Below, one piece after another: positions 39,593 to 64,000 of a stretch of 64,000 nucleotides of DNA. The DNA is taken from the NCBI RefSeq assembly GCF_024296665.1, contig NZ_CP100762.1, forward strand, positions 744,001-808,000, given 5' to 3'. The notes beneath the pieces were generated by a model. It saw only the letters and a list, made by a program, of their open reading frames with translations, was not told the origin of the DNA and ran no database searches. The DNA is from Salinilacihabitans rarus. Lineage in GTDB: Archaea > Halobacteriota > Halobacteria > Halobacteriales > Natrialbaceae. A program made the position numbers and the translations under genes. Numbering within the stretch: position 1 is the stretch's first letter; each line of letters opens with the position of its first letter.

Positions 39593-39594
39593 CT

Positions 39595-48526: not shown

Positions 48527-48838
48527 TTACTTGTCGTTCGGGTCGTAGATCTTCCGGATCCACGCGCCTTGGGCGAGCTTCAACTGTATCTCTTCGCCGG
48601 CTGGCCAGAGGTTGTCGAAGCCGCCGAAGACGTAGCCGCAGCCTTCGTCGAGGGTGATGTCGTCGTTGAAGACGACGCAGGGGCGTTGGACGTCGCCGCG
48701 GTCGCTGTTGCCGAGCATGACTTTCTGGTGTGGGGTGTGGCTGTTGAGGTCGATGGTGTAGTTGACGAAGGCTTTCGTTTTGATGAAGCCGTTCGTGCCG
48801 TCGAACTCGTCGATGTGGAGGAACGGTGGGCTGCTCAT
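48527..48838 (-). CDS. Hypothetical protein
   Basis: A 103-residue protein with a beta-rich pattern: FLHIDEFDGTNGFIKTKAFVNYTIDLN, VMLGNSDRGDVQRPCVVFNDD, CGYVFGGFDNLWPAGEEIQLKL. No family recognised. Its ATG overlaps the stop of the zinc-ribbon gene by 4 nt (ATGA), so the pair is translationally coupled. Confidence 0.65.
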   Translation of the reverse strand: MSSPPFLHIDEFDGTNGFIKTKAFVNYTIDLNSHTPHQKVMLGNSDRGDVQRPCVVFNDDITLDEGCGYVFGGFDNLWPAGEEIQLKLAQGAWIRKIYDPNDK

Positions 48839-49221
48839 CGGTGCTCACCTCCGCGGATGACGGTGACTTGCCCGCAGGTTTGGACGGCGGGTTGTGGTTC
48901 TCCGCAGGTTGGGCAGCGCGTGTCGGTGATCGGGTCTACGAGGTCGTCGCAGGCGTCGCACATCACGAGGCCGGTCGTGTTGAGGCGACCGTCGTTGATG
49001 AGGACGGTTCGGAGCCAGCCGTCGCGGACGAGCATGAGTGCGTCGACGGGTTCGTAGAGGCGGGCGTGGCTGCAGCGGGCGGCGGGAGCGTCGACGGGTT
49101 TGGCGGCGCGCCAGGCGGCTTCGAGCGGGCGGTCGGTGGTGAAGCGTTCGTGCCAGCGGTCGCGGGCGTGCTGTTTGATCGGCGGGAGATACGTCTGGTC
49201 GAGGTTGGTGTAGCTGGACAT
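48835..49221 (-). CDS. Zinc-ribbon hypothetical protein
   Basis: A 128-residue protein. The N-terminal part, IKQHARDRWHERFTTDRPLEAAWRAA with RLYEPVDALMLVRDGWLRTVL, has the pattern of small RelE/BrnT-like or DUF4258-type folds, but that is weak. The C-terminal part is a zinc ribbon, MCDACDDLVDPITDTRCPTCGEP. It is the first gene of a two-gene unit with the 103-residue protein. Role unknown; toxin-like function would be speculation. Confidence 0.65.
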   Translation of the reverse strand: MSSYTNLDQTYLPPIKQHARDRWHERFTTDRPLEAAWRAAKPVDAPAARCSHARLYEPVDALMLVRDGWLRTVLINDGRLNTTGLVMCDACDDLVDPITDTRCPTCGEPQPAVQTCGQVTVIRGGEHR

Positions 49222-49843
49222 TGGTCGTAGGAGCCGCGTGTGGTGGTGCGTCGCCGTTTCAGTGCCAGTGGCTGCTTAGGGGGTGTATCTGCGCTGGCCA
49301 GTGTTGCCACTGGGCGCGGTGATACGAACTGGTGTAGAGACCCTGCGAGGTGAGCCGTCGAGAGGGATGGAACTCTCTGGGGGGAGTGTCGAAGGGTCTC
49401 TAAGGGGCGTCGCTGGCTAACGACGAGAAGCGATGCGTGAACCTCGCGCGTACGATGGAGTGTACATCGAAGCGGTTGGCTGGGTCGAAGCCTCGAAGCT
49501 CGCGTGCGTAATGGAGTACCCCTTCGTAGGTGAAGCAGAGTCTTCGTGAACTGGCCACTTCTGAAGAGGAGTTACGAAGGGGCCAAGTTGGACACCTTGC
49601 TTGACGAAGGGCTGGCGAACTCCGCGCGTTAATTGGCAGCCGGGCCGTCGTCCCGCCTTATGGCGGAACCGACGACCGACGACCCTCATCCCGCATATTG
49701 TCGCAGGGAATACTTAAAGGAAAATCACTCATAGACATTCCAACTCCCTAATATAATTACCACCGAGTATTTACCGGCAGAGGAAGGGGGTATCTATATC
49801 CGATGAGACTTCGTTAGCGGATGCAACGGGCAGGTAGCCGCAG
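49222..49843. other. Intergenic region with inverted repeats
   Basis: This 622-base region holds no supported gene. Short hairpins occur: CCAGTGTTGCCACTGG at 49298-49313, and GCCAGTGGC at 49264-49272. Around 49440-49530 two related 20-odd-base segments occur (CGCGCGTACGATGGAGT and CGCGTGCGTAATGGAGT). A region near 49545-49600 can fold with CTTCTGAAG and GGCC arms, so an unannotated RNA is conceivable. A 38-codon plus-strand frame (49433-49549) and a 90-codon minus-strand frame (49417-49689) are not convincing. Confidence 0.4.
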
Positions 49844-50458
49844 TCACAGTGGGAAGTGATCGTGTTTTTTGAGTTCCCGTTTGACGAGCTGGGATACGCT
49901 GTAGAGATCGGATTTCGAAACCTCTTGTTCCTCCAGCAGCGTTTGGAACTCGTCTTGTTCCAGCATCCGCGGCGGGAGTCGGTCGGCATCGAGATCCGGC
50001 AAGGCCTCCTCAGGGATCCGATTGAACCGGTCCCACTCGACGACGACTTTGATCGTGGCGAGAGCAACTTTTGACAGGCGTTTCTGCCGACCGAACCGAT
50101 CAAGATTCATCGTCGTCATCGCGGTGACTGCCGCTTGTTGCTGATGAGCGGGGAGATCGAGAGCCGAGCAGAACGCCTCCGTCACACGAACCTTATCACG
50201 GACTGCCTCACGGGTGCTGTGATTGCCGTCGGAACGATGCCGGCCTTCATTATGCCGAATGAGTTTCTCTACCTCTCCGCCAGCACTACCGATACCGACG
50301 CGAGTCTCACCAAACGGATCGTACCCCGAGGAATACGCATCCGGGGAATGGTCGCGCTCCTGTTGACGGGAGGGCTGGAGCTCTGGAGTTTCATCGACTT
50401 GAGAACCGTCTGTCTCCTCTGACTCAGTTTGATCTCCGGCGGTGACTTTCTCACTCAC
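49844..50458 (-). CDS. Hypothetical helical protein
   Basis: A 204-residue protein. The first 80 residues are polar and probably disordered. The remainder is helical: DKVRVTEAFCSALDLPAHQQQAAVTAMTTMNLDRFGRQKRLSKVALATIKVVVEWDRFNRIPEEAL, then DEFQTLLEEQEVSKSDLYSVSQLVKREL. The helix pattern vaguely recalls cyclin-like or helix-turn-helix folds, but no family is assigned. It lies downstream of the MrfA-like helicase gene on the same strand, 107 bases beyond its stop. Confidence 0.65.
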   Translation of the reverse strand: MSEKVTAGDQTESEETDGSQVDETPELQPSRQQERDHSPDAYSSGYDPFGETRVGIGSAGGEVEKLIRHNEGRHRSDGNHSTREAVRDKVRVTEAFCSALDLPAHQQQAAVTAMTTMNLDRFGRQKRLSKVALATIKVVVEWDRFNRIPEEALPDLDADRLPPRMLEQDEFQTLLEEQEVSKSDLYSVSQLVKRELKKHDHFPL

Positions 50459-50565: not shown

Positions 50566-53301
50566 TTAGGAGTAGAAGACGACGGGGCGGCGGTCGCCGC
50601 CGTGTTCGTCGTCGGGGAGGTGTTCGGCGAGGTCGTCGCGGTCTTCGTCGCCGAGGAGTTGGTTGAGGACGTCGATGGCGGAGGCGCGGAGGAGGGGTTT
50701 GTTGTCGTTGCCGCAGTTTTCGTCGAAGGTGCAGGCAGGGCAGCCGTTGGGTTGGCCGCAGTTGCAGTCCCGGAGTTGGTCGCGGGCGCGTTCGGCGAGG
50801 GCTTCGAAGTTCTCGTAGATGGCACGGGCGAAGCCGAGGCCGCCGTCGACGCCGTCGTAGATGAACCAGCCGGAAGCGGTTCGACCAGTAAGTTCCTGGG
50901 TGCGTTGTTCGAGGGCGTGCGTGGCGGCTTCGAAGGAGTCGCCAATGGAATCGGTGATGTCGTCGTATTCAGGATGGCTGTAGTGGGTGTCCATGACGAG
51001 CGTGGCGAGACCGCCGAGGTCGTTCTTGTCGACGCGGAGTTCGAGCGGGGCGGTTTGGATGGTGGCGTGTTCGGCGGCGTGGAGCCCAGCGATGTACCCC
51101 AGGTGGGCGATGCCGGTCTCTTCTGGATCGACGCCGGTTTCGACGCCGTAGTCCTGGTATTTGTGGGTGAGGGCGGTTTCGACGTCTTCGGGGACTTCGA
51201 CCCAGCAGAGCTGTGTGTCCATCAGGATCGGCGGGGTTTCCGTCGGGATTGCTTGTTGTTTCGGGTCGCTGTTGCCGATGTAGAGCTGGTCGTATGAGTG
51301 GTGGTGGACGAGGACGGTGCCGCGGCCGAAGTGGAGTGTGAAGCCGTTGACCTCGCGGGATGCTTCGGATTCGGCGTCGAGGACGTTGACCTTGTTTCGG
51401 GTGCGGGTGTAGTACTCGCAATCGACTGGTTGGAGTTCGATGATGGGTTGCGGACGGTCCTCGTCCATGTTGACGACTTCGAACTGCTGGCCGTTCTGGA
51501 GGCGGACTGCGCCTTCGTGGTAGTCGCGGTAGGCGCGGTTCTGTTCGATTGGTTCTAAGTCGAGATCGTCGGGGAGGCCCCATTTCTCGCGGTCGACGTC
51601 GTCTGCGAGTTGGAGGCGGTAGTCCGTCCCGGTGGTGCCGTACAGGTTGACGCGTGTCTGTGGGCGGCTTGGGCCGGAGTAGTGGACGGCGGCGTCGAGG
51701 TAGCCATCTACGAACCCAGCTTCACGCCACATCTTCACGGCGGCACGGAGTCGGTCTTCGTCGGCGAACGTGTCGATGTCTGATTCGCCAAGGGCGATTT
51801 CGTCGGCGGCGGCGAGGACGTGGGTTGCGAAGACGGAGTTGTTCGAGGTGTCGACGACGGCGTCTTCGACGTCGTTTTCGAGGAGGTACTCGGGGTGGGT
51901 GAGGATGTACTGGTCGAGGGTCCGGTGGTCGCCGACGAGGACGGCGACGCTGCGGCTGGCTTCGCGGCCGGCGCGACCGATGCGTTGCCAGAAGGATTGT
52001 CGCTGGCCCGGGTAGCCCATGAGAACGGTCGCGTCGAGGCTCCCGATGTCGATGCCGAGTTCGAGCGCGGATGTCGTGGCGAGCCCGGTGAGGACGCCGG
52101 TTTTGAACTGGTGTTCGCGGGAGTGCCGCGTGCGGCGACCGAGCCCAGCGTTGTACGCTTCTCGCCCAACGGTGGTCGAGCGGTCGTACTCCCGTGGGTT
52201 GGTTCGGCGGTGTTCGTCTGCGCGTTGGATGCTGAGTTCGGTGAGTTTGCGGCTCTCGCAGAACAGTAACGTGCGGATGTCGCGCGAGGTCAGATGGTTG
52301 AACACTTTCGGCGCTTCGACGCTGGCCGGAACGCGCTCGGCGACGAACTCCTCGTCGTCTTCCGCTTCTGAGTCGGTTCCGTCGTCGATGTCGATCTCGA
52401 ATGACTCCTCGTCGGGCGTGGCGTCTCGGGTTTTGTCCCGTGGCGGTGGGTTCCAGAGGATAACGTCGCGGGGGCCGTGTGGTGAGCCGTCGTCGTCGAT
52501 GACGGTCACGGGGGCGTTGATGAGTTCCTCGGAGTGGTCGCGCGGGTTGCCGATTGTGGCGGAGGTGAGGACGTACTGTGGGTTGCCGCCCCAGTAGTCG
52601 GCGACGCGTTGCATCCGGCGGAGGATCCACGCGACGTGCATGCCTTCGATGCCGGTGTACGTGTGTGATTCGTCGATGGCGATGAGGTCGAGCGCGCTGT
52701 AGAAGCGACTCCACTTGTCGTGGTGTTCGAGGTAGACGTTGAGCCCGGCGAAGTTCGTGAGGATGACGTCAGCTTGCTCGCGGATGGCGCGCCGCCCGTC
52801 TGTGACGTCCCCGTCGTAGATTTCGACGCGGATGTCTAACCCGAGTTCGTCGTACAGGTCGTCGAGGGCTTCCTGCTGGTCTTTGGTGAGCGCCTTCATC
52901 GGGTAGACGCACAGCGCGGTGGAGGCGTCGTTCTGTTCGGTGGCTCTCGTCCCGTCGGGGTTGAGGACGCCGGCGTCGAGGAGGTTTCGCGCGATTTGCA
53001 GGCCGTAAATGTGGGTTTTCCCGCTGGAGGTGGAGGTCGTGACGGCGACGTTGTCACCTGTTTCGAGCGCGTTGAGGGCGTCGGCTTGGTGGCTGAACAG
53101 GTCGTACGGGTACGGGTCGGCGAGTTCCGGGCGGAGGACCTCCGCGGTTGGGGTGGTGTCCGCTGATTCTGCGGGGAGTTCGATGGTTTCGATGTACTCT
53201 GAGTCCGGGGTGAGACCGACGCGGGGGAACGTGTCGATGATGGTGTCGGCGTCAACGTCGGTGCGAGCGGTCGCGTCGGTTGAGGTGGTGTGGTCACTCA
53301 T
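50566..53301 (-). CDS. MrfA/YprA-like DEAD/DEAH helicase with DUF1998 zinc domain
   Basis: A 911-residue SF2 helicase. The RecA core has FSHQADALNALETGDNVAVTTSTSSGKTHIYGL (motif I at about 90-97), YPMKALTKDQ, VILTNFAGLN, LIAIDESHTYTGIEG (DE-x-H box), YVLTSATIGNP, and later TSALELGIDIGSLDATVLMGYPGQRQSFWQRIGRAGRE. The C-terminal DUF1998/MZB domain ends with a four-cysteine zinc site, CNCGQPNGCPACTFDENCG near 850-870, and GGLGFARAIYENF. This architecture is that of Bacillus YprA (MrfA), a 3'-5' helicase for mitomycin damage. It starts 2 bases after the stop of the MrfB-like gene. It probably unwinds DNA for that exonuclease and Argonaute. Confidence 0.92.
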   Translation of the reverse strand: MSDHTTSTDATARTDVDADTIIDTFPRVGLTPDSEYIETIELPAESADTTPTAEVLRPELADPYPYDLFSHQADALNALETGDNVAVTTSTSSGKTHIYGLQIARNLLDAGVLNPDGTRATEQNDASTALCVYPMKALTKDQQEALDDLYDELGLDIRVEIYDGDVTDGRRAIREQADVILTNFAGLNVYLEHHDKWSRFYSALDLIAIDESHTYTGIEGMHVAWILRRMQRVADYWGGNPQYVLTSATIGNPRDHSEELINAPVTVIDDDGSPHGPRDVILWNPPPRDKTRDATPDEESFEIDIDDGTDSEAEDDEEFVAERVPASVEAPKVFNHLTSRDIRTLLFCESRKLTELSIQRADEHRRTNPREYDRSTTVGREAYNAGLGRRTRHSREHQFKTGVLTGLATTSALELGIDIGSLDATVLMGYPGQRQSFWQRIGRAGREASRSVAVLVGDHRTLDQYILTHPEYLLENDVEDAVVDTSNNSVFATHVLAAADEIALGESDIDTFADEDRLRAAVKMWREAGFVDGYLDAAVHYSGPSRPQTRVNLYGTTGTDYRLQLADDVDREKWGLPDDLDLEPIEQNRAYRDYHEGAVRLQNGQQFEVVNMDEDRPQPIIELQPVDCEYYTRTRNKVNVLDAESEASREVNGFTLHFGRGTVLVHHHSYDQLYIGNSDPKQQAIPTETPPILMDTQLCWVEVPEDVETALTHKYQDYGVETGVDPEETGIAHLGYIAGLHAAEHATIQTAPLELRVDKNDLGGLATLVMDTHYSHPEYDDITDSIGDSFEAATHALEQRTQELTGRTASGWFIYDGVDGGLGFARAIYENFEALAERARDQLRDCNCGQPNGCPACTFDENCGNDNKPLLRASAIDVLNQLLGDEDRDDLAEHLPDDEHGGDRRPVVFYS

Positions 53302-53303
53302 TG

Positions 53304-54851
53304 TTAGAAGTCGGTGAGGCCGGCTTGCTGGCCGGTTGCGCCGCCGGTGCCGCTGTCGGTCATGTCGCGGCGTGTGGCGTTCGTGATGGCTTGGTAGACG
53401 TGCCAGAGCGCTCGGCAGTCGTCTTCACAGTAGGCCCTGTGACGGTCCCAGTCCAGTTCGGCTGCCGGGGAGTCGGGGTTCCGCATGAATTCCTGGTATG
53501 CGGCTGCGGTTTGCGCACCGGTCAGTCCGGTTCCGGCAGAGTCGTAGCCGAGCGCGCGAGCGACATGGTCGAGTTTGTTCGTTCGACCGGGGAGGAGGGC
53601 GTTCCCGTCGCGGACGGCCCATTTGTACAGGTCGTAGGTCCAGACGTCCTCCCATGCATCGACGTACTCGGGGAGGTGCTGTTCAAGGAACTGGGAGATG
53701 TGCGGATAGTCAAACTTGTACCCGTTCCATGTGAGCACCGTCCTGTCCTGGTGGTTGGCAATGAACCACGTTATGAACGCTTCGAGGACTGGTTTTGGAT
53801 CCTTCGGGTGTTGCTTCTCGATGAACGCTTGGTAGGTGTCGGTTGCCGGGTCGTAGACGCCCAACTGCCAGATAATGGTGGGTGACAGGCCGTCGGTTTC
53901 GATGTCGAGGCAGAGCGGTGGGCGGTCGTCGCGGGTCTTGACTGGTGTCTTGTTCGTGAGGACGATTGGTTCGCCGGTGTCGATGACGTCGGCGTGAGCG
54001 TGTATCTTTTCCGCCGTTGTCTGCCCGATTCCGGGCAGGTCGGTGAGGGTACTGAGTGCGAGGTTCTGGACGTCGGTCGTTGTTTGACAGCCCTGTGTGC
54101 GGAGTCGCTGGGCAGTGGATTGGCCGACGCCGTTCAACGCTCTGAGGCCGAACTGGTCGGCGTCGACGGCTTCTGCTGCGATGGACCCGCGGGCCGTACA
54201 AGTGTACTGTGCGAACATCGCACCGCCGTGGTCTGTGGCACCGAGTCCGGACATCGGGACGTGGACTGAGGAGTGGTTGTGTGGCAGCTCCCATTCGTGG
54301 TAGTACTCTGCTGGTTGCCCGCCGGCGAGGACCGTGACTGGTTCGGGCAGGGTGGCGCTGATCGCCGCCAACTGCTCGGCGTGCGGCAGGGTTGTCGAGA
54401 GGGTCGTTGTATCCCACTCGACAGTGAGTTCGGGGACGAACAAGAAAGTCGCCGCCCCGGAGCCTGTCTGCCGCTCACCTGCTTCCAGTTGGGTCTGGAG
54501 GCGAGGGAGGACATCCCCGGTTTGGATGGCGAGGATGTCTATCGTCTCGGATGGTGGAGCGGCGTCGGGGGCTTCGTGAACACCGGCATCGGGGGAGTAC
54601 CGGTAGTGGTGGACGCGGGTTTCGCCACGACCGAGTTGTGGGTGCAAAACGGGGATATCCCGGGCCGCATCACGGGCGGTGGCCTCTGCAGTCGGAGTTC
54701 GGGGCCCCGGGATCGTGATGAGTCCCGGACTGAAGTACCGGACGGCGTCCCGGACTGCGGGCTGTGACACGCCGTCGAGCGTCGCTGCGGGGAGTGACAG
54801 TAACTCCAAGGGTGTATCGCCGTCCGTGGTCCAGTCAGTATCGCCTGTCAT
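53304..54851 (-). CDS. MrfB/YprB-like RNase H-fold exonuclease with HhH domain
   Basis: A 515-residue protein. The first 230 residues are not recognised (DILAIQTGDVLPRLQTQLEAGERQTGSGAATFLFVPELTVEWDTTTL). Residues about 235-285 are a helix-hairpin-helix pair: LRALNGVGQSTAQRLRTQGC and LTDLPGIGQTTAEKIHAHA. Residues about 310-490 are a DEDD exonuclease: PLCLDIETDGLSPTIIWQLGVYD (ExoI), VLTWNGYKFDYPHISQFLEQ (ExoII) and HRAYCEDDCRALWHVYQAI (ExoIII). This matches YprB (MrfB), the exonuclease partner of YprA in bacteria. It lies between the Argonaute gene (9 bases away) and the helicase gene (2 bases away). Confidence 0.9.
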   Translation of the reverse strand: MTGDTDWTTDGDTPLELLSLPAATLDGVSQPAVRDAVRYFSPGLITIPGPRTPTAEATARDAARDIPVLHPQLGRGETRVHHYRYSPDAGVHEAPDAAPPSETIDILAIQTGDVLPRLQTQLEAGERQTGSGAATFLFVPELTVEWDTTTLSTTLPHAEQLAAISATLPEPVTVLAGGQPAEYYHEWELPHNHSSVHVPMSGLGATDHGGAMFAQYTCTARGSIAAEAVDADQFGLRALNGVGQSTAQRLRTQGCQTTTDVQNLALSTLTDLPGIGQTTAEKIHAHADVIDTGEPIVLTNKTPVKTRDDRPPLCLDIETDGLSPTIIWQLGVYDPATDTYQAFIEKQHPKDPKPVLEAFITWFIANHQDRTVLTWNGYKFDYPHISQFLEQHLPEYVDAWEDVWTYDLYKWAVRDGNALLPGRTNKLDHVARALGYDSAGTGLTGAQTAAAYQEFMRNPDSPAAELDWDRHRAYCEDDCRALWHVYQAITNATRRDMTDSGTGGATGQQAGLTDF

Positions 54852-54860
54852 GGGTGTCGG

Positions 54861-57470
54861 TTAGATGAACCCGATTTTGTCGCGGAGTTTGTTCGTCGGT
54901 GGGAGGTGTTTGCGAGCGGCAGCGGCGCTTGCCAGATCGGCGTACATCGTCGTGATGGGGAGACGCGCGGTGGCGTTCGATGCGCCGATGTGCGCTTGTG
55001 ACAGGAGGTACGTTTGTGCAGCTAACGTCTCGATGGGTGTCTCGCCTTGGACGCGTTCGACGGTGATAGGTTGGGGAAGGCCGGTGCCTTCTCTGCTAGC
55101 GAGGGTTTCGGGCTCACCGAAGGTGGCGACGATGGCTTTGGGAAGGTCCTCGTAGATGGCTGCGGTCGCTTTCTGTGGCGTGTCGAAGTGCGCGCCGCTG
55201 TATTTCAGGACGCGGGCTGGGGCCTGCTTTCGGATTTCGACGACGTCGTACGCGACATCGAGTTCGGTGAGGAATGTCTCGACGTCGCTGAGGTCTTCGT
55301 TGGCGAACCCGTCCCGGTGGATCGTGATGTGGTTCGGGTACCGGTCGTACCGGGTTCGGAACCCCATCACGGCCTGTTTGACGATCTCTTTGAGTTCCTT
55401 CGGCGGAATCTTCTCCCCGGACTGCGGTCGGGAGGAGGTGTACCCAAGGACGGCCCCGTCAGCGTGGATCGCGGTGGTTGCGGCAGCGAGATGGATGTGG
55501 TTCCCGTCGGCTGATTCGTCGTACTGGTGGGTGACGTCGATACCGAGGTGGAGTTCGGAGTCACCAGGCAACGCACGCTCGATAGTGAACGGGATTCCGC
55601 CGGCAGCCGCGACCAGTCCGAGGGCGATGTTGATGATCGTGAAGGGCTCGTCGAGCGTCGCTTCGTGGGCGAACTGGCTATTGAGGTCTTTCGTGGCGAG
55701 GACCTTCTTCACCTCGTCGTACACACGTCCCGGTTCAACCGTGTCGAAGTACCCGGTGTTCTTCGGCGGGAGCGTGCAGAACACGGCGTCGTAGTCGTGA
55801 TCGTCCGGGATTTCAGCGGCGATCTCCATGCCGAGCTGGTCGGCCGACATCGTCGCGTCGAAGGTGACCTCTTCGACGTCGTCTGGCGGGGCCCCGATCT
55901 GTTCGAGCTTGCTTTTGAGCGTAGACCAGCCCCGTTGGATCCGGTCGTCCCGTTTTTCCATCCGGATATGGCACACGCGGAAGGGATCCGGTGCTTCGTA
56001 CACGCCGAGGCGGGTAACGTCGCTCGGGTGTGTCCCGGTCTGCCCGTTACTGAACTGGAGCACGTCTGCTTCCGGGTCGAAGAGCCCTTGAACGGAGATG
56101 TTCTCATCGCCGAGCAGCGGGTCAGGTTCGAACTCGATGGTGTGCCCGTCGAACTGGAGTGGGCCGAGCTGTTCGACGAAGCTCTCTGCGTTCGAGATGC
56201 ACTGCTGTGCGGACAGGCGTGTATTGAGCCGCTGTTTTTCTGCGAAGTCCGGTGCGAATCGAGAGAGGTTCTCAGGGTGCCCTTGGAGTGCGAGGAGTTC
56301 CGGTGGGAACGCCATCTCGGTTCCATCGCCGCGCTGACGGACCGTCCAGATGACTTCTCGGTCTGCGTTCTCGATATCGTTGACTTTCGCTGGATCGACC
56401 CAGGGCTCTTCGCGGTGATACTGGACGAGGCTCTTGTTGCCCTCGATGTGGAGCTTGTCGGTGACGGTTTCTGGGCCGACGCCGATGACGTACAACCCCC
56501 TGTCTCGGTAGGAGGGTGTCACCCGGAGTCCCGGGTGAATCTCGTCGTCGTCGAGCTGGTCGAGCGTCCGGTCGGAGAGGATCCGGTGGCGGTAATCGAC
56601 GTGCAGGTAGGCGGCACGCGAGGGGAGTACCTCGACGGTGAGGTTGTACCGCTCGTGGAGGCGGAACCCTTCCTTCTCGATGACCGGGTCGATCTCCAGG
56701 ATCTTGTCGATGCCGTGGATATCGTACTGGTCGCGTTTCGCGTCCTTGAGGACTTCACCGAGCATTTCGCCGAGGATCTCCCGGTCATCCGCGTCCGCGT
56801 AGACGACCGGTCGAGTGCCGACCTCGTTGATCTCGAAGCGAGGCAGGTCCACGCGTTCGTGCGCGAGTTTCACCAGGGACACGAGCTTGAACGCGCTGCC
56901 GACGACGACCGGTGTTACATCGAGTTGCTGCCGGACTTTGCGGCGTGCTTTGTACGTCGCGCGGAGCGTGTTCTGCCCTGAGGGCCGGTATCCTCGCTTC
57001 GGAACAAGTTCGTACTCGTAGACGTCGTAGTCCGGCAGATTATCTGTGGCACGGAACGTCGTGAGGCCGTGGTAGCCGCTGTCCGCGGACGTATCGGGGG
57101 TTTCGGCGAGCCCGTCTTCAAGGGCTTCCTCGGTGGTCGGGGGACCCTCCAGTTCGAGGAGTTTAGCATCGCTCTGGACGGTGAGGTTCTGGTATTTCGT
57201 CCCGTCGTTGCCTTCGTCGATATCGTACTCGACAGCGGTGATGAGGTACGTGGCTCCTCTGTCGTAGTCTTCGTCGTAGATCTCCGCTGGTGCGGAGTTC
57301 TTCCACATCGTGATGGTCCGGTCGTCGCCGCCGCCGTCTGTGAATTTCAGGTTGCGGCGTGGGTACTGACCTTCGTTCTCGAAGACTGTGTCGAGGGTGA
57401 AGCGGACAGCGTAGGTGTCTCCGACCGGTACGTCGTTGAGTGAGTTCTCGTCGAGGTTGACTGGTTTCAT
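54861..57470 (-). CDS. NgAgo-like long prokaryotic Argonaute
   Basis: An 869-residue archaeal Argonaute, very similar in layout to N. gregoryi Ago. Residues about 10-105 form the extra N-terminal OB-fold (repA-like) domain seen in NgAgo (YAVRFTLDTVFENEGQYPRRNL, TITMWKNSAP). N, PAZ and MID regions follow (PVVVGSAFKLVSLV; HERYNLTVEVLPSRAAYLHVDYRHRI; RDRGLYVIGVGPETVTDKL). In the PIWI domain the catalytic tetrad is intact: D645 in LGIDVTHQYD, E686 in PQSGEKIP, D720 in ITIHRDGFANEDL, and D845 in LPITTMYADLA. All four are spaced exactly as D663, E704, D738 and D863 of NgAgo. The protein ends in the hydrophobic IGFI typical of Argonautes. The start at 57470 gives an ATGA overlap with the DUF2797 gene. 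Confidence 0.96.
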   Translation of the reverse strand: MKPVNLDENSLNDVPVGDTYAVRFTLDTVFENEGQYPRRNLKFTDGGGDDRTITMWKNSAPAEIYDEDYDRGATYLITAVEYDIDEGNDGTKYQNLTVQSDAKLLELEGPPTTEEALEDGLAETPDTSADSGYHGLTTFRATDNLPDYDVYEYELVPKRGYRPSGQNTLRATYKARRKVRQQLDVTPVVVGSAFKLVSLVKLAHERVDLPRFEINEVGTRPVVYADADDREILGEMLGEVLKDAKRDQYDIHGIDKILEIDPVIEKEGFRLHERYNLTVEVLPSRAAYLHVDYRHRILSDRTLDQLDDDEIHPGLRVTPSYRDRGLYVIGVGPETVTDKLHIEGNKSLVQYHREEPWVDPAKVNDIENADREVIWTVRQRGDGTEMAFPPELLALQGHPENLSRFAPDFAEKQRLNTRLSAQQCISNAESFVEQLGPLQFDGHTIEFEPDPLLGDENISVQGLFDPEADVLQFSNGQTGTHPSDVTRLGVYEAPDPFRVCHIRMEKRDDRIQRGWSTLKSKLEQIGAPPDDVEEVTFDATMSADQLGMEIAAEIPDDHDYDAVFCTLPPKNTGYFDTVEPGRVYDEVKKVLATKDLNSQFAHEATLDEPFTIINIALGLVAAAGGIPFTIERALPGDSELHLGIDVTHQYDESADGNHIHLAAATTAIHADGAVLGYTSSRPQSGEKIPPKELKEIVKQAVMGFRTRYDRYPNHITIHRDGFANEDLSDVETFLTELDVAYDVVEIRKQAPARVLKYSGAHFDTPQKATAAIYEDLPKAIVATFGEPETLASREGTGLPQPITVERVQGETPIETLAAQTYLLSQAHIGASNATARLPITTMYADLASAAAARKHLPPTNKLRDKIGFI

Positions 57471-58333
57471 TGTGCGGCCTCCGTTGCTGGGAGACATTCT
57501 GCAGGCGCTTCGACCGTGACCTGTTTCCCTTGCAGCTGGTCGAAGTTCACAACAGCGTCCTTGGTCGCTAGGATCTGACCCCGGACACCGAGCACCTCTG
57601 ACTGTAGTCCTTCGTCCACGGTGAGTCCTGGGAGGGTGCTGACGGTCGCATCGTCCCCGGCGAAGTGAGCGGGGATTCGAACAATTCGGTCTTCGAGAGC
57701 GGTCTCGTCACTGGGGAGCGTCGAGAACGGTTCCAGCGGCCCTGTGAGGACATCGCGGCACGACTCGACGGCTTCCGTAAGCGCGTGTTTCGGCTCGTCC
57801 AGCGGGTCGTACCACTCCTTCGTCGATGCTGTGGACACGACGGCTTCCAACGCGTCCTCAACGGTGCCGGCGACGCGGCGGTTCGGTGTTCGTGCGACGA
57901 TCATGCCGTGCGTCGCGCCCTGTTCCGCCCAGCGACTCGCGGCACGATCTGCTTGCGTGATGCCGGCTTTCACGCTGTCTTTGGCGACGAGGTACACGAC
58001 GAAGTTGTGCGCACACGACCGTCGTTTAAACGATGGGAACGGGCAGTCCTGATACGTACAGGCTGTTCCGGGCGTGTAGACGCACTGTTGGAACGGTGGC
58101 TTCGACTGGCACTCCTCACACGGAGAGGCGTCAGCTCGGTCACCGCAGTGCTGGCAACGGAATCCGGGCTGGACGTCGATGCGAATCTCTTCTCCGACGA
58201 GTCCGGCGAGGTCGATTGGGCCGTCAGTGTCAGCGAGGTACAGTCGGGGTTTCCCCCGCGACCAGGAGACCATCGTTGGGTGACCACTCACGGTCGCGCG
58301 CGAGGCCAGCTTGGTCGGGTGCTGACCGGTCAT
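57467..58333 (-). CDS. DUF2797 protein (zinc-binding, GIY-YIG-like)
   Basis: A 288-residue protein of the DUF2797 family. A cysteine-rich part, CQHCGDRADASPCEECQSKPPFQQCVYTPGTACTYQDCPFPSFKRRSC, would bind zinc. It is followed by NFVVYLVAKDSVKAGITQADRAASRWAEQGATHGMIV, a strand-loop-helix pattern reminiscent of GIY-YIG nucleases. Catalytic Arg and Glu candidates (R153 or so, E in VEDALEAVV) exist but cannot be proven. It is translationally coupled to the Argonaute gene on one side and the 239-residue protein on the other (ATGA overlaps), so it is a likely functional partner of Argonaute. Confidence 0.85.
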   Translation of the reverse strand: MTGQHPTKLASRATVSGHPTMVSWSRGKPRLYLADTDGPIDLAGLVGEEIRIDVQPGFRCQHCGDRADASPCEECQSKPPFQQCVYTPGTACTYQDCPFPSFKRRSCAHNFVVYLVAKDSVKAGITQADRAASRWAEQGATHGMIVARTPNRRVAGTVEDALEAVVSTASTKEWYDPLDEPKHALTEAVESCRDVLTGPLEPFSTLPSDETALEDRIVRIPAHFAGDDATVSTLPGLTVDEGLQSEVLGVRGQILATKDAVVNFDQLQGKQVTVEAPAECLPATEAAQ

Positions 58334-59049
58334 TTGTACCCTCCGAGGGTACCCTGGAAGTCAGACGGGCTCCTGTACGGGTCGATGATCTCGTCGGTCA
58401 GGTATCGCATCGCCTCTGCCTGGATCGCCATCTCGATTTCGCGGCCGTAGAGCGTGATGCGACCGGTGTCGTCGAACCCGACTTCAACTTCGATGTTCCG
58501 GTTCGGAAGGTCGACACGAACCTGTTCGAACGTGTCCCCGAAATACTGCTCCCACCAGTCCGTCTCCCGCAGGTCGCCCCGGTCTTGTGCCGACACGTGG
58601 TCCGGTCGTTCGCGTTTGCTCGGACTGACGTCGACACGCTGGACGCGGCTGGATTCCTCGATGACTGTCCGAAGATCCTCCTCGTCGAACTCCACGGTCT
58701 CGAATTTTACGTCCTCATCGAGAACCGCAGCGAGTGTCGTGAGAATCTCCTGTTCGACCTCCTTGGTTGCCTTTGCGATGGCCACGTACCCGTTCTGGAG
58801 GAAGAGGACCGCGTACCGGTCGGCGCGTTTCGTTTGTTCGGTGCCTTCGAGCGTGGTCAGGTCGGTGTACGTCTCACGACCGTATTCCGCCCAGCAGATC
58901 CCGTCTGCGCCCACCTTGAACGTCTGTGGAAGCATTCCGCTGCGAAGGTCGGCGTCCGAGTTGAATGCCGAGGTGGCCTCGATTCCGGCTTCGATTGCTT
59001 CCGTGTCGATGCTCTCGTCGCGTAGTGGCACAATCTTGTAGCTAGCCAT
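58330..59049 (-). CDS. Conserved-looking unknown protein of Argonaute operon
   Basis: A 239-residue acidic protein, not recognised. The N-terminal part is beta-rich (ADGICWAEYGRETYTDLTTL, RADRYAVLFLQNGYVAIAKATKEVEQEIL). The C-terminal part has DWWEQYFGDTFEQVRVDLPNRNIEVEVGFDDTGRITLYGREIEMAIQAEAMRYL. The alternation suggests a two-layer fold, perhaps a nucleic-acid-binding one. It overlaps both neighbours (8 nt with the AAA ATPase gene, 4 nt with DUF2797), making it an integral member of the operon. Confidence 0.78.
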   Translation of the reverse strand: MASYKIVPLRDESIDTEAIEAGIEATSAFNSDADLRSGMLPQTFKVGADGICWAEYGRETYTDLTTLEGTEQTKRADRYAVLFLQNGYVAIAKATKEVEQEILTTLAAVLDEDVKFETVEFDEEDLRTVIEESSRVQRVDVSPSKRERPDHVSAQDRGDLRETDWWEQYFGDTFEQVRVDLPNRNIEVEVGFDDTGRITLYGREIEMAIQAEAMRYLTDEIIDPYRSPSDFQGTLGGYK

Positions 59050-60163
59050 CGAACTCGGCCTCCTGGTTGATTCGTCGTTGGATGAACGGTTCCAGCGTCT
59101 CGGTCACACGATAGAACGCGCGCCGACCCTCTCGGTCGCGTTCGACAAAGCCTCCGTCGCTGAGTTCCCGGAGGTGATAAGAGATGGTCGATTTGTCGCG
59201 GTGGAGTTCCTCGACCAACGTGCCCGGTTGGACACCTCGATCATTTGGCAGCTGGAGGATCTGTTTCAACACCGTGAGCTTCGACTCCGAGAGGTCCTGG
59301 ACGCGAGCGCTCGCATCGACCAAGTGGAGTCGGTCGGCAGCCGAGTTCGTGGCTGCGACGTCTCCTGGCTCCAGTTCTTTCCGAAACGCCTCTTGAAGCG
59401 ACTCCAAGGCCAGGGTGTGAATCAATCGCGGGATCCCCTCACTTAGCTCGTGGATACGGTCCACGGTTTCCGAGGGGAGTGTAAATTCGTTCTCGGAGAG
59501 CACCTCGAAGATGATTCGCAGCGTCTCGTCGGTGTCTTTGCGGGGGAACGCATCGAGGTGGATCTCGTTCGAGGGCGGGAGCGCATCTTGCACACGCCCT
59601 CGGTTGACGGCCCACCGTTCGGGCGTCCAAGTCGTTACGAACAGGCCGCTGTCTACGGCTCCTCGAAGTTCGTCGAGTGAGGTTTCGATTCGTTTGTCTA
59701 GCCCGCAATCATCGATGCAGACGATTGGGGTTTCGAGCTCGGTCAGATCGTGAGCGAACTCATCGAGGAAGAATCCGTCGTCGGCCTTCTTTCCGAGAGC
59801 CGTCGCGTCGATGAGCTTCGTATCGATGTCTGCGGAAAGTTCCGTGAGAAACGAGACGACCGTGTGGAGTAACTGGGTCTTCCCGATCCCGGACGGTCCG
59901 ATTACAGGAGTGTGGTAGACGTCCTGTTGCCGGGTTACAAAGCCCGCGTACTCACCGATCTCGTCTAGCGCGTCGTCGTGATTGACCGCTTTCTCAGGGT
60001 GATTTTGGAAGTATTCTGTGAGTCGTTCGTAGCTAGCTTGCTCTGGTTGGAACTCGTGATCGGACAACCAGACTTCGTAGCTCCCGACGCGCCCCTGTTG
60101 CCCGCGTTCGAAGGCTTCTCGGAAGCGGTTTTTCTTGTCTTCGTCGTCGTTACCTGGGTCCAT
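59042..60163 (-). CDS. AAA ATPase with C-terminal winged helix, first gene of Argonaute operon
   Basis: A 373-residue STAND/Cdc6-like P-loop ATPase. Walker A is IGPSGIGKTQLLHTVV near residues 89-103, Walker B PIVCIDDCGLDKR near 155, a sensor region FVTTWTPERW, and a helical lid that includes LSEGIPRLIHTLALESL. Residues about 300-365 form an ArsR-like winged helix: LTVLKQILQLPNDRGVQPGTLVEELHRDKSTISYHLRELSDGGFVERDREGRRAFYRVTETL. The ATG at 60163 replaces a TTG three codons upstream. The combination fits a DNA-binding regulator or a target-sensing ATPase that might load or control the Argonaute module. Confidence 0.85.
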   Translation of the reverse strand: MDPGNDDEDKKNRFREAFERGQQGRVGSYEVWLSDHEFQPEQASYERLTEYFQNHPEKAVNHDDALDEIGEYAGFVTRQQDVYHTPVIGPSGIGKTQLLHTVVSFLTELSADIDTKLIDATALGKKADDGFFLDEFAHDLTELETPIVCIDDCGLDKRIETSLDELRGAVDSGLFVTTWTPERWAVNRGRVQDALPPSNEIHLDAFPRKDTDETLRIIFEVLSENEFTLPSETVDRIHELSEGIPRLIHTLALESLQEAFRKELEPGDVAATNSAADRLHLVDASARVQDLSESKLTVLKQILQLPNDRGVQPGTLVEELHRDKSTISYHLRELSDGGFVERDREGRRAFYRVTETLEPFIQRRINQEAEFDG

Positions 60164-60200
60164 CAGTTCCAACGCCTCAAACTATCCAAGTTGAGCAAAA

Positions 60201-60211
60201 CTATTAAAACC
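60201..60211. promoter_or_regulatory. Shared, near-palindromic TATA box of Ago operon and mre11
   Basis: CTATTAAAACC reads as TATTAAAA on one strand and TTTTAATA on the other, and sits about midway in the 81-base gap between the AAA ATPase start (60163) and the mre11 start (60245). It is about 40 nt from each start. An inverted repeat CTCAA-n10-TTGAG (60176-60195) lies on the operon side and could be an operator. One box may drive both directions. Confidence 0.5.
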
Positions 60212-60244
60212 TATTGGTTAGATGGACTGTATGTGGAAGCCACC

Positions 60245-61750
60245 ATGTTAACGCTGACTCACATCGCGGATACGCACCTCGGCCACCGACAGTACGGGTT
60301 GAAACAACGAGAAGACGACATGGTGTCAACGACACGCGCGGCACTGCAAGAGATGGTCGGCGAGCGCGACACGGACGCCATCCTACTTCCCGGGGACCTG
60401 TTTCACTCCCGGGATCTCCGCCCGAAAGTCCTCGACCAGGTCGAACAAGAGCTCAGCCGAGTACCGGACGACGTGCCGGTACTGGTGTCCCGAGGGAACC
60501 ACGACGAGAACCTAACCCCGCGCGAGGTGACGTGGCTCAATTACCTCCACCGGCGCGGCCACATCGTGTTTCTGAAGGCGGATCTGGAGGCAGACTCGGA
60601 GACTGCCCGCTTCGAACCGTACAACCCGGAGGATCCCGGTGATCACGCCGGGTTCTACGACATCGAGGTCGCGGAGTTCGACGGTCCAGTTCGCGTGTTC
60701 GGGCTCCAGTGGCGAGGCGCACGAACAGGGCAAGCGTTGCAACAGGTGGCACACGGGATTCAAGCGACGAACGCCGAGCACGGCGAACCGGCGGCGACCG
60801 TGCTACTGGCACACTTCGGCATGGAGGACGAGGTCCCGACGTTAGGCGGGACGGTGACCCACGCCGAACTCCGCGACGTGAAAGAGCACGTCGATTACCT
60901 CGCACTCGGGCACATTCACAAGCGGTACGACGCTGCTGGGTGGATCTACAACCCCGGATCCCCAGAAGCCCACAACACGCGCGAGGGCCACCACGACTGG
61001 GAGCACGGCTACCATTCGGTCGCGTTGACAACCACCGAAGACGAGGCCGAGACCGCAGTCGAGTACGAGGTGGACCACCACCCGACCAAACGGCGACCGT
61101 ACTGCCGGGTTGAGTTCGATGTCACGGAGTACGACTCACCAAGCGAACTCGAAGCCGGGTTCCAGGACCACGTCCGCGGGGAGCAATCGCGGATTGATGA
61201 GTACTGTCGGAAAGAGGAGTTCACGGCGCAGGGTGACCCCAGAGCGCCGATCATCGACCTGCGGTTCAGCGGAACGTTACAATTCAGTCGCGGGGACTTC
61301 CGGACGGACGAACTCGCGGAGTGGGCAAAAGAGGAATGCAGTGCCCTGTACGTGCAGGTGAACACTGGGATCCGGACGGCGGACGTCCAGCAACTGATCT
61401 CGGAGATCGACGAGGACGAGGTCTTTCAGGATGGCCGGTTGAACACGGCGGCGCTGGAACACCGCGTGTTCGAGACGATAGCGAAGGAATCCATCTACGA
61501 CAAGCAGGCCGAAGATGTCGCCGAGGTCCTAGGGAACGCACACCAGATGGCGCAGGCCGAAGAGGCCATCGAAGACATCCGTGATTCTGTGAGTTCCGCA
61601 CGGCGAGACTTGTTCCCGGAGTTAGCTGACGATGTTGTGCTCGACATCGATGAGGATCCGTTCTCGGACACGGATACTGACGGCGAGGAATCGGGTGATG
61701 GTGGAGCGAGTGGAGAAGCTGACGATGAGGCGGAGGTGATGCAACAATGA
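60245..61750 (+). CDS. mre11: Mre11 nuclease
   Basis: A 501-residue double-strand-break repair nuclease. The phosphodiesterase motifs are intact: ADTHLGHRQYG (D9, H11), LLPGDLFH (D51), VLVSRGNHDENLT (N85, H86), LLAHFGMEDEVPT, and YLALGHIHKR. Mre11 has Mn2+-dependent 3'-5' exonuclease and endonuclease activity and works with Rad50. The C-terminal 200 residues form the capping domain and an acidic tail. The ATG at 60245 was chosen because the conserved domain begins there. It overlaps rad50 by 4 nt (ATGA) and is divergent from the Argonaute operon. Confidence 0.94.
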   Translation: MLTLTHIADTHLGHRQYGLKQREDDMVSTTRAALQEMVGERDTDAILLPGDLFHSRDLRPKVLDQVEQELSRVPDDVPVLVSRGNHDENLTPREVTWLNYLHRRGHIVFLKADLEADSETARFEPYNPEDPGDHAGFYDIEVAEFDGPVRVFGLQWRGARTGQALQQVAHGIQATNAEHGEPAATVLLAHFGMEDEVPTLGGTVTHAELRDVKEHVDYLALGHIHKRYDAAGWIYNPGSPEAHNTREGHHDWEHGYHSVALTTTEDEAETAVEYEVDHHPTKRRPYCRVEFDVTEYDSPSELEAGFQDHVRGEQSRIDEYCRKEEFTAQGDPRAPIIDLRFSGTLQFSRGDFRTDELAEWAKEECSALYVQVNTGIRTADVQQLISEIDEDEVFQDGRLNTAALEHRVFETIAKESIYDKQAEDVAEVLGNAHQMAQAEEAIEDIRDSVSSARRDLFPELADDVVLDIDEDPFSDTDTDGEESGDGGASGEADDEAEVMQQ

Positions 61751-64000
61751 AAATCACCGAGGTTGCGTTAGAGGATATCAAGTCGTACGAGGGACGGACA
61801 GTCGTGCCGATTGAGGGTGGTGTGACGGCGATTCTCGGTGAGAACGGCGCAGGGAAATCGACGATTCAGGAAGCGATTGGCTTCGCGCTGTTCGATTCGC
61901 TGCCGTTCAACAACAAGGACTTCGTGCGCGAGGGTGCGAGTTCCGGAACTGTCGAGGTTACCTTTGAACAAGAGACCTCGGAAGGCCGGAAACGCTTCCG
62001 TGTGACGCGCTCGGCAGGGCGTTCGAGCTACGGTGTTCACCGCTACGATTCCGAGAACGACGAGTGGATTGACCAGGACATCGATTCCAAATCCCAGCTC
62101 GTCAAGTGGTTGTGCGCCCAGTTTGGCGTTGAAGACAAAGACGAACTGCAGAGCCTGTGGGAGTCGTGTATCGGCGTTCCGCAGACGCGGTTCCTCTCTG
62201 ACTTCGCGCAGCGACCCGCCAGTCGGAAAGCGACGTTCGATGCGCTGCTGAACCTCGACGCGTACGAAGAGTCCTGGAATCGTCTCAAGGACATTCCGGA
62301 CGCGATTGAACGGGAGGAGCAGAAGCTCCGTGAGGAGATAGCAGGGCTCACGAGTACGGTGCAGGACCTGCCAGACGAGCGGGCGAAAGCGGAATCGCTG
62401 GCTGATGAGGTCGAATCAATCGAAGCCGAGATTGATCGGAAGACCGACGAGCTGGCTGAGAAAGAAGCGGAGCACGAAGAGTTAGAGGCCGTCCAGGACG
62501 AAATCGAAAACCTCGAACAGGAAGTCCGGTCACAGGAGCAAGAGATCGAGGCGACCGAGGGAGAGCTGGAAACTGCTGAGCAGGAGCTTCGCGCCGCTCA
62601 GAAAGCACAGGAAAAGTGTGAGGAGAACCGTGAGGGGTATCAGCGGCACGAGGAAGCGAGCGAGCGGCTGGACGAGCTAGAGGAACGAGAGAGCGAACGA
62701 GACGCGCTTGCTGAGCAGAAAGCCGAACAGAAACAAGAGGTCTCGTCGGTCGAATTCGAGGTGAACCAGCTCGAAGACGACTTAGAGACGCTGCAATCGG
62801 CGCAGGACACGCTGGAGGAGCGCGAGGACGAGAAACAGCGGTACGAGGAACTCGACGAGAAAATCAACTCGCTACAGCAACGTGAGGACGAGGTCGAGGA
62901 ACTGCAGGACCAAATCGACGAGTTCGCTGGAGACATCGCCGAGAAGCAAGCGGAGGTCGAGTCGCTCGAAGCGAAAGTCGAGGCCATCGAGGAAGAGTGG
63001 GAGGCGACGACGCATCCGGAAGAACTCGACGACGAGATTAACCAGCGGAAGGCGCGTCGACAGCAACTGCAGAACGAACGGGAACGACTCGAAGAGCAGT
63101 TGGAACGGTTACGAGATACGGATGTGGATGCGCCGTGTCCAACGTGTGACCGGCCACTGAAGGAAGAACACCGGTCGGACGCAATCGACCAGCGCGAAGA
63201 ACGGATCGAAGCCATCGCCACAGAACGTGCGGAGTTCAGCGAGGAACTCTCCGATCTGCGTGACCGTCGGGAGGAAGCGCGAGACGTCAAGCGACGCGCC
63301 GACAAGCTCCCGGTCCACCGTGAGAAGATCGAGTCGTTGGAAGCAGAGATCGAGGACCTCCAGTCAGAGAAGTCGGAGACGAAGGAGACGCTAGAGGGCC
63401 TCGAAGAGGAACTGGCGGAACTGCCAGAGCTCGAAGCAGAGCGAGAGGAACTGCAGGAAGCGCATGACGAATACGAGACTGCGGAGTTCCGAGTGCAGGA
63501 GCACGCGGACGTCCCTGACGAATTAGAGGAGAAACGCGCAGAGCTTGAGGCTGCCAACTCGCAGTTGGAGGACATCAACGACGAGTTGGCGGAATACGAA
63601 GGGCTGGACGAGAAACTGTCTGAGGTCAAAGAGACACTGGAGGAGACCGAGTCGGCGCATCAGACGTACATCGAGCACAAGCAACAGGCGTCTCAGGTAG
63701 AGGAGCGGCAACAGGCCGTTGACGAGACGGAAGCGGAACTGGCCGAGCTCAAAGAGGCTCTCGACGAGACGGAAGCCGAACTCGAAGAGACGAGAGCAGC
63801 GTTCGACGAGGAGCGGCTTCAGACGCTTGAGTCGGACATCGATGACCTCAAAGGCGAGATACAGCGGGCGAAAGGATCCCTGGGTGAGAAGAAAGAGAGC
63901 CTCCGCGAGGCACGCGGGGAGATCGAGCGTCTGGAGGCGAAGTTAGAGGAGCGGCAGGAGACGCTCCAACAGTTGAAGGAGTTGAAAGCTGATCAGCAGT
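61747..64000 (+). CDS. rad50: Rad50 ATPase (3' end beyond right edge)
   Basis: About 751 N-terminal residues of an SMC-like ATPase are present. The Walker A motif is ILGENGAGKSTIQE at residues 31-39, followed by the Q-loop region PQTRFLSDFAQRP, a long coiled coil rich in Glu and Leu, and the zinc hook CPTC at residues 464-467, which dimerises two Rad50 molecules. A second coiled coil starts after the hook; the C-terminal ATPase half lies outside the window. With Mre11 it tethers and resects DNA ends. The gene starts within the Mre11 stop (ATGA). Confidence 0.95.
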   Translation, partial: MKITEVALEDIKSYEGRTVVPIEGGVTAILGENGAGKSTIQEAIGFALFDSLPFNNKDFVREGASSGTVEVTFEQETSEGRKRFRVTRSAGRSSYGVHRYDSENDEWIDQDIDSKSQLVKWLCAQFGVEDKDELQSLWESCIGVPQTRFLSDFAQRPASRKATFDALLNLDAYEESWNRLKDIPDAIEREEQKLREEIAGLTSTVQDLPDERAKAESLADEVESIEAEIDRKTDELAEKEAEHEELEAVQDEIENLEQEVRSQEQEIEATEGELETAEQELRAAQKAQEKCEENREGYQRHEEASERLDELEERESERDALAEQKAEQKQEVSSVEFEVNQLEDDLETLQSAQDTLEEREDEKQRYEELDEKINSLQQREDEVEELQDQIDEFAGDIAEKQAEVESLEAKVEAIEEEWEATTHPEELDDEINQRKARRQQLQNERERLEEQLERLRDTDVDAPCPTCDRPLKEEHRSDAIDQREERIEAIATERAEFSEELSDLRDRREEARDVKRRADKLPVHREKIESLEAEIEDLQSEKSETKETLEGLEEELAELPELEAEREELQEAHDEYETAEFRVQEHADVPDELEEKRAELEAANSQLEDINDELAEYEGLDEKLSEVKETLEETESAHQTYIEHKQQASQVEERQQAVDETEAELAELKEALDETEAELEETRAAFDEERLQTLESDIDDLKGEIQRAKGSLGEKKESLREARGEIERLEAKLEERQETLQQLKELKADQQ

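What the first reader, a model, noticed from the sequence alone, without database searches (positions are those of the whole stretch)
50566..60163. NgAgo-like Argonaute in a six-gene operon with MrfA/MrfB-like helicase-exonuclease
The Argonaute has an intact DEDD tetrad and the N-terminal OB-like domain of NgAgo. Its gene is coupled by overlaps or gaps of at most 9 bases to an AAA-wHTH ATPase, an unknown protein, a DUF2797 protein, a YprB/MrfB-like exonuclease and a YprA/MrfA-like DUF1998 helicase. In bacteria MrfAB is a DNA-repair pair. Its placement with Argonaute suggests a complete machine: the ATPase senses or loads, the helicase unwinds, the exonuclease makes or trims guides or degrades targets, and Argonaute cuts. 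The joint operon may be an undescribed Argonaute defence system. The function is inference; the gene order and motifs are seen.
Basis: partly seen in the sequence, partly recalled or inferred. Interest (0 to 1): 0.92.

Follow-up and report, generated by a model that had tools for sequence, protein, structure and literature searches.

The report
Argonaute cassette with DNA-end-resection machines
A salt-loving archaeon carries a DNA-cutting Argonaute in a six-gene operon that travels between species, together with a back-to-back operon of DNA-end-trimming enzymes, as one roughly 17.5-kb block; this suggests how such Argonautes may get their guides and dispose of invading DNA.

Summary
The six-gene operon is real. 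The genes are intact, overlap or are 2-9 bp apart, and the Argonaute has D654/E695/D729/D854. But it is only half of the conserved unit. A divergent operon starts about 80 bp away and runs past the window edge: Mre11-like, Rad50-like, a second NurA, an unknown protein and HerA. Both operons recur together at 70-97% protein identity in haloarchaea of three families plus Natrinema hispanicum. Similarity stops at the helicase stop codon on one side and at the HerA stop codon on the other. A PLD gene of the Argonaute-associated (AgaP) family lies beyond HerA.

In other NgAgo-clade loci, NgAgo's included, only DUF2797 is constant (11/11). It is an Argonaute-linked second copy of a core gene. The exonuclease-helicase and AAA-unknown pairs are separable modules. 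AAA-unknown also heads CBASS operons, and exonuclease-helicase pairs accompany other Argonautes or stand alone.

More broadly, 45 of 57 haloarchaeal Argonaute loci have an end-processing machine within 10 kb (Mre11-Rad50-NurA-HerA, AddAB-like or MrfAB-like).

Best reading: a mobile anti-invader Argonaute system whose end-resection enzymes make guides and/or finish cut DNA. Linkage is shown; mechanism is inferred.

The parts
59042..60163 (-). AAA ATPase with C-terminal winged helix (373 aa), first gene of the six-gene operon
   Evidence: P-loop GPSGIGKT at 92; weak Pfam MarR_2/AAA_22; start at the ATG 60163 shared by relatives
58330..59049 (-). Unknown protein (239 aa), always directly after the AAA-wHTH gene
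   Evidence: no Pfam/NCBIfam/PADLOC match; family alignment A1; low-confidence model whose best PDB matches are RdgC, E 2.3e-4
57467..58333 (-). DUF2797 protein (288 aa), Argonaute-linked second copy of a core haloarchaeal gene; zinc-ribbon cysteines and a GIY-YIG-like sequence motif
   Evidence: Pfam 1.6e-24; two-copy/one-copy test; alignment A2; model pLDDT 83
54861..57470 (-). Long-A Argonaute of the NgAgo clade (869 aa; 878 aa from the upstream ATG at 57497), DEDD tetrad intact
   Evidence: Pfam Piwi; PADLOC pAgo 1145 bits; tetrad alignment with NgAgo
53304..54851 (-). YprB/MrfB-like DnaQ-fold exonuclease with helix-hairpin-helix (515 aa)
   Evidence: RNase_H_2 6e-28 and HhH; motifs DIET, NGYKFD, YCEDD
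50566..53301 (-). YprA/MrfA-like SF2 helicase with MrfA Zn-binding domain (911 aa); its stop codon is the left edge of the conserved block
   Evidence: DEAD, Helicase_C, MZB; GKT, DESH, QRIGRAGR, Cys cluster; boundary
60164..60244 (.). Conserved intergenic region of about 80 bp between the two divergent operons, with TATA-like and repeated CTAT elements; putative bidirectional promoter
   Evidence: near-identical in six loci; function inferred
60245..61750 (+). Mre11-like calcineurin-type nuclease (about 502 aa), first gene of the divergent operon
   Evidence: Metallophos 1.2e-11 on the orthologue; motifs DTH, GDLFH, GNHD, GHIH
61747..64000 (+). Rad50/SMC-like ATPase (903 aa; continues to 64458 outside the window)
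   Evidence: SMC_N 2.8e-20, AAA_15 4.7e-17 on the orthologue; Walker A, CPTC zinc hook, SGGE signature. Followed outside the window by NurA (64458-65723), unknown (65797-66462), HerA (66462-68105) and PLD (68208-70499)

Best explanation
This is a mobile anti-invader cassette built around a catalytically competent, NgAgo-type Argonaute. It consists of two divergent operons (AAA-wHTH, unknown, DUF2797, Argonaute, MrfB-like exonuclease, MrfA-like helicase; and Mre11-like, Rad50-like, NurA, unknown, HerA) plus, usually, a PLD-family gene. Proposed working: free or broken invader DNA ends are opened and resected by the Mre11-Rad50 and HerA-NurA machine and by the MrfA-MrfB helicase-exonuclease. The resulting short single strands load the Argonaute, perhaps with the DUF2797 protein. 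The guided Argonaute nicks or cuts matching DNA, creating new ends that the same enzymes degrade. The AAA-wHTH/unknown pair acts upstream as a regulator or sensor, since it also heads CBASS operons. Shown: gene content, intact active-site motifs, co-transfer as one block, purifying selection, and recurrent linkage of haloarchaeal Argonautes with end-processing machines. Inferred: guide making, target degradation, regulation and the defence role.
For: Six-gene operon complete in five or more genomes at 77-96% identity. Nucleotide similarity begins within about 20 bp of the helicase stop codon in all four comparisons, and ends at the HerA stop codon in two of three comparisons that reach it; in the third it continues through the PLD gene. 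All 12 genes dN/dS 0.04-0.15. In G277/G337, AAA-unknown-PIWI-Mre11-Rad50-NurA-unknown-HerA form one run with gaps of 24 bp or less (47 bp at one junction of G337, where a late start was called). In G243, Rad50-NurA-like-HerA-PLD-Argonaute have gaps of 31 bp or less. 45 of 57 Argonaute loci have an end-processing machine within 10 kb, on several branches of the Argonaute tree; of 25 control loci 1 has Mre11-Rad50 and none AddAB (these controls were picked by the MrfAB-like helicase, so they do not test that module). DUF2797 has a second copy in 7/7 NgAgo-clade genomes and 0/11 others. Precedents: NpAgo with the PLD AgaP resists plasmids and an ssDNA virus (PMC11442185); CbAgo cleavage is followed by RecBCD degradation (PMC10164581).
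Against: No functional data; the defence role is inferred from family precedent and island context. The modules are separable: NgAgo-clade relatives lack MrfAB and AAA-unknown; Mre11-Rad50-NurA-HerA stands alone in many genomes; MrfAB pairs stand alone; G350 lost DUF2797-Argonaute but kept the rest. Twelve of 57 Argonaute loci show no such machine within 10 kb. Haloarchaea already have core NurA and DUF2797 copies, so the accessory ones may be redundant.
Confidence: 0.5

Rival explanations
1. Defence-island accretion: independent mobile modules (AAA-unknown, DUF2797-Argonaute, MrfB-MrfA, Mre11-Rad50-NurA-HerA, PLD) came together by recombination and are carried side by side without acting as one machine.
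For: Each module occurs without the others; the rest of the window is a defence island (type IIG restriction enzyme, Snf2 helicase, HNH nuclease); G350 lacks only DUF2797-Argonaute.
Against: Overlapping genes in one polycistron; identical gene order and edges in several families at dS up to about 1-2; different Argonautes are joined to the same machines in different gene orders, several times co-directionally with gaps of about 30 bp or less.
Confidence: 0.25
2. Housekeeping or repair role: an Argonaute-assisted DNA-repair or replication-completion cluster (as TtAgo helps chromosome decatenation), with accessory copies of resection enzymes.
For: MrfAB is a mitomycin-C repair pair (PMC11194089); HerA-NurA-Mre11-Rad50 is the archaeal end-resection set (PMC7776575); TtAgo has a replication-completion role (cited in PMC7776575).
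Against: Patchy occurrence (57/394 genomes match Argonaute at all, only four of the sampled genomes carry the six-gene form), horizontal spread across families, location in a defence island, and a core copy of NurA present elsewhere in nearly all genomes.
Confidence: 0.15
3. The Argonaute is the trigger and the nucleases or PLD protein act as toxic effectors (abortive response), rather than guide makers.
For: The PLD AgaP alone is toxic and is restrained by its Argonaute in Natrinema pellirubrum (PMC11442185); the AAA-unknown pair also serves CBASS, a system that often kills the cell (the killing is established knowledge).
Against: The Argonaute tetrad is intact; PMC11442185 reports non-abortive, DNA-clearing immunity for the known haloarchaeal pair.
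Confidence: 0.1

Closest known systems
APAP system (haloarchaeal long-A pAgo with PLD protein AgaP; PMC11442185)
   Same: Haloarchaeal long-A Argonaute with DEDX tetrad; a PLD protein of the same family lies next to HerA at the cassette edge; that paper also notes helicase genes near some ago-agaP operons
   Different: Argonaute only about 26% identical; PLD not in the Argonaute operon and diverged from AgaP (28% over 246 aa); DUF2797, AAA-unknown, MrfAB-like and Mre11-Rad50-NurA-HerA are not part of the described system
NgAgo (Natronobacterium gregoryi)
   Same: Same clade (about 40% identity), homologous N-terminal domain, same tetrad, DUF2797 gene directly upstream in both
   Different: NgAgo has no AAA-unknown and no MrfAB-like pair beside it; its neighbours are a C5 methylase, DrmE and a helicase, and an accessory NurA operon lies about 26 kb away
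MrfAB (YprAB) of Bacillus subtilis
   Same: SF2 helicase with MZB/DUF1998-type zinc domain next to a DnaQ-fold exonuclease
   Different: Exonuclease third motif has Tyr (YCEDD) where MrfB is DEDDh; operon context is Argonaute, not a stand-alone repair pair
HerA-NurA-Mre11-Rad50 operon of thermophilic archaea
   Same: Same four activities in one operon with intact motifs
   Different: Here an accessory, patchy second set with an extra 221-aa protein, divergent from or joined to Argonaute operons; NurA is a second copy beside the core one
CBASS
   Same: Shares the AAA-wHTH/unknown pair at the head of some haloarchaeal CBASS operons
   Different: No nucleotidyltransferase in the cassette

Membership tests
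Long-A prokaryotic Argonaute | Full-length with MID-PIWI and complete DEDX tetrad | tested here: met
   878 aa, Piwi domain, D654/E695/D729/D854 aligned to NgAgo; nuclease activity not tested
NgAgo clade | Groups with NgAgo in an Argonaute tree and shares its N-terminal extension | tested here: met
   16-row clade with 100% SH-aLRT support (quick tree); N-terminal 125 aa 33% identical
NgAgo clade | N-terminal OB fold | tested here: inconclusive
   no Pfam OB match for the N-terminal 125 aa; no structure made
MrfAB pair | YprA-type helicase with DUF1998/MZB zinc domain adjacent to YprB-type exonuclease | tested here: met
   MZB 4e-15 and RNase_H_2 6e-28, gap 2 bp
MrfAB pair | DEDDh catalytic set of MrfB | tested here: not met
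   third motif is YCEDD, a Tyr form
MrfAB pair | Function in mitomycin-C repair | not testable with these tools
   needs a mutant
APAP (pAgo-AgaP) | AgaP PLD gene in operon with Argonaute | tested here: not met
   a PLD-family gene is present but lies beyond HerA in the divergent direction, inverted in two genomes
APAP (pAgo-AgaP) | Split HxK(x)49GSxN motif in the PLD protein | tested here: not met
   cassette PLD has a closely spaced HSK...GSAN; N. pellirubrum (L052) matches the split form
Archaeal HerA-NurA-Mre11-Rad50 operon | All four genes in one operon | tested here: met
   Pfam on orthologues, motifs, gene order
GIY-YIG nuclease (for DUF2797) | GIY-YIG fold and sequence profile | tested here: inconclusive
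   conserved Y..KxGIT..R..RW..QGA..NR..AG..E motif and a strand-strand-helix-strand-helix order in the model, but no Pfam, PDB-sequence or Foldseek match
RdgC (for the unknown protein) | RdgC ring fold | tested here: inconclusive
   only RdgC chains reach E < 0.001, but model pLDDT is 59 and TM-score 0.38

The most novel reading that the evidence does not exclude
Haloarchaeal Argonautes work as the targeting arm of dedicated double-strand-break resection machines: whichever machine is encoded next to them (Mre11-Rad50-NurA-HerA, AddAB-like or MrfAB-like) supplies their DNA guides and finishes the cut DNA. That would make guide biogenesis a genetically encoded, swappable module. The Argonaute-specific DUF2797 copy would be a dedicated guide-handling partner that NgAgo studies have lacked.
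Probability: 0.3. Interest if true: 0.88.

Novelty: new variant of a known kind. Interest (0 to 1): 0.74.

Why it matters
Where DNA-guided Argonautes get their guides is an open question. Here the candidate enzymes are encoded with the Argonaute, travel with it as one block, and can be deleted one by one. The DUF2797 partner is also conserved beside NgAgo, whose activity has been disputed, so it offers a testable missing component. The shared AAA-wHTH/unknown pair links Argonaute and CBASS defence.

Tried and rejected
Six genes as the complete unit: rejected, the block is at least 11 genes. All five partners as NgAgo-clade constants: rejected, only DUF2797 is. HerA-NurA as a haloarchaeal rarity: rejected, core NurA is in 385/394 genomes; only the second copy is accessory, 40/394. 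DUF2797 as a GIY-YIG nuclease: motif-level only; profile, PDB-sequence and Foldseek searches did not support it. Genome-wide count of the Rad50-like gene: search failed twice, so NurA was used instead. Viral carriage of the Argonaute: none found; no close plasmid copy, best 38%. A published Argonaute link to DUF2797 or to Mre11/Rad50/HerA/NurA: none in the held open-licence library, which is not exhaustive.
Full report
What is there. Six minus-strand genes run from 60163 to 50566 with overlaps or gaps of at most 9 bp: AAA-wHTH, unknown, DUF2797, Argonaute, MrfB-like exonuclease, MrfA-like helicase. Pfam and PADLOC identify all but the unknown, with the AAA and wHTH domains only weakly matched. 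Active-site motifs are intact: Argonaute D654/E695/D729/D854 aligned with NgAgo; helicase GKT, DESH, QRIGRAGR and zinc cysteines; exonuclease DIET, NGYKFD, YCEDD; AAA P-loop. NgAgo was recognised as L042 by comparing its 887-aa translation with the sequence as I recall it. The window lies at 744001-808000 of a 3.62-Mb single-contig haloarchaeal genome.

It is half of a larger unit. A divergent operon starts about 80 bp from the AAA gene and leaves the window at 64000: Mre11-like (60245-61750), Rad50-like (61747-64458), NurA, a 221-aa unknown and HerA, ending at 68105 in window-equivalent coordinates. Comparing 54 kb around the locus with three other genomes, plus a 22.6-kb Natrinema hispanicum stretch, similarity begins within about 20 bp of the helicase stop codon in all four. 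It ends at the HerA stop codon in G376 and G152; in G096 it continues through a PLD gene, which is inverted in the other two. The N. hispanicum stretch ends inside the block, so it gives no right edge. The four sampled genomes fall in three families, so the block has moved horizontally. All 12 genes have dN/dS of 0.04-0.15 (in G152 the HerA alignment covers only 342 of 547 residues, so that gene may be broken there). The short intergenic region is nearly identical in six loci and looks like a shared promoter (inference).

The operon is modular. DUF2797-Argonaute: 11 of 11 other NgAgo-clade loci have DUF2797 directly upstream, NgAgo included, and none has AAA, unknown, exonuclease or helicase within 10 kb. 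Eighteen genomes all have one core DUF2797; a second copy, beside Argonaute, exists in the 7 with an NgAgo-clade Argonaute and in 0 of 11 others. AAA-unknown: 15 of 394 genomes match the unknown, two of them very weakly. Where the neighbourhood was read and long enough, an AAA gene always precedes it, whether before this Argonaute, before a divergent PIWI, or before a CD-NTase of CBASS; a named record shows the CBASS case. Exonuclease-helicase: a roughly 57% copy is common in the window's own family, and closer copies are scattered, often alone. G350 has the whole block minus DUF2797-Argonaute, with the unknown gene frameshifted.

The wider pattern. Of 57 Argonaute rows from the sampled haloarchaea, 45 have within 10 kb at least one gene of an Mre11-Rad50-NurA-HerA set (20), an AddAB-like set (21) or a MrfAB-like pair (14); 28 have a PLD gene. 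The sets sit on several separate branches of the Argonaute tree, which was a quick build with some open forks and long branches. Among 25 loci chosen for a MrfAB-like helicase away from Argonaute, one has Mre11-Rad50 and two have PLD; these controls say nothing about the MrfAB module itself. A rough chance estimate: 41 accessory NurA places in about 1.46 Gb and 57 Argonaute genomes predict about 0.03 within 10 kb; six are seen (G000, G096, G376, G152, G068, G142), plus two beside the divergent PIWI. The six include four copies of one block, so they are not independent. Tight runs: AAA-unknown-PIWI-Mre11-Rad50-NurA-unknown-HerA in G277 (gaps up to 24 bp); Rad50-NurA-like-HerA-PLD-Argonaute in G243 (gaps up to 31 bp); Argonaute-PLD-AddAB-like genes in about a dozen genomes. 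The NurA-like assignment of c18 rests on a profile match (77% probability, E 2.5e-6). The AddAB-like label rests on UvrD and PD-(D/E)XK domains; c11 itself has no match.

Unknown parts. The DUF2797 model is good (pLDDT 83); a short conserved motif resembles GIY-YIG, but no search supports that. The unknown protein gave a weak model (pLDDT 59) whose only PDB matches under E 0.001 are RdgC chains; I treat that as a lead.

Explanation. In bacteria CbAgo acts with RecBCD (PMC10164581), and a haloarchaeal Argonaute-PLD pair is a proven defence (PMC11442185). I therefore propose that the resection and helicase-exonuclease genes make guide precursors from, and degrade, invader DNA, while Argonaute targets it. 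Gene content and linkage are shown; every step of the mechanism is inferred. The main rival is accretion of unrelated defence modules; the tight mixed polycistrons argue against it, the separability of modules for it.

Known and new. Argonautes with helicases and nucleases nearby are known in general (PMC6299218), and YprA-family helicases in other defence systems are reviewed without mention of Argonaute (PMC12458937). I found no paper linking Argonaute to DUF2797, or joining it with HerA-NurA-Mre11-Rad50, in an open-licence library. Not tested: transcription, activity, and Argonautes outside the haloarchaea. Gene calls in neighbour loci come from a simple codon-usage caller that missed or shortened some genes.

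Noticed in passing
window 48527-50458 (-): A trio of small unknown genes just past the helicase stop (103, 128 and 204 aa) recurs at another NgAgo-clade locus (L041) and beside a stand-alone Mre11-Rad50-NurA-HerA operon (L148).
   Followed up: partly
window 35840-46591: Rest of a defence island: type IIG restriction-modification enzyme, Snf2/DrmD-like helicase and an HNH nuclease.
   Followed up: partly
L042 333-7505: NgAgo itself sits beside a C5 methylase, a DrmE protein and a large helicase, which looks like a DISARM-type system.
   Followed up: partly
L132, L133, L135, L180: The AAA-wHTH/unknown pair heads haloarchaeal CBASS operons, followed by a further unknown protein and the cyclase.
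   Followed up: partly
L130 10452-12740, L131: A divergent PIWI protein (745-762 aa), aligned without the last catalytic Asp and with HRD replaced by AKD, lies in one polycistron with AAA-unknown and Mre11-Rad50-NurA-HerA.
   Followed up: partly
L066-L082: About a dozen haloarchaeal Argonaute operons share the order Argonaute, PLD, unknown, PD-(D/E)XK nuclease, UvrD helicase-nuclease with fixed short gaps, resembling Argonaute plus AddAB.
   Followed up: partly
L162, L163, L164: A PLD gene directly precedes the Mre11-Rad50-NurA-HerA operon in the same direction without an Argonaute nearby.
   Followed up: no
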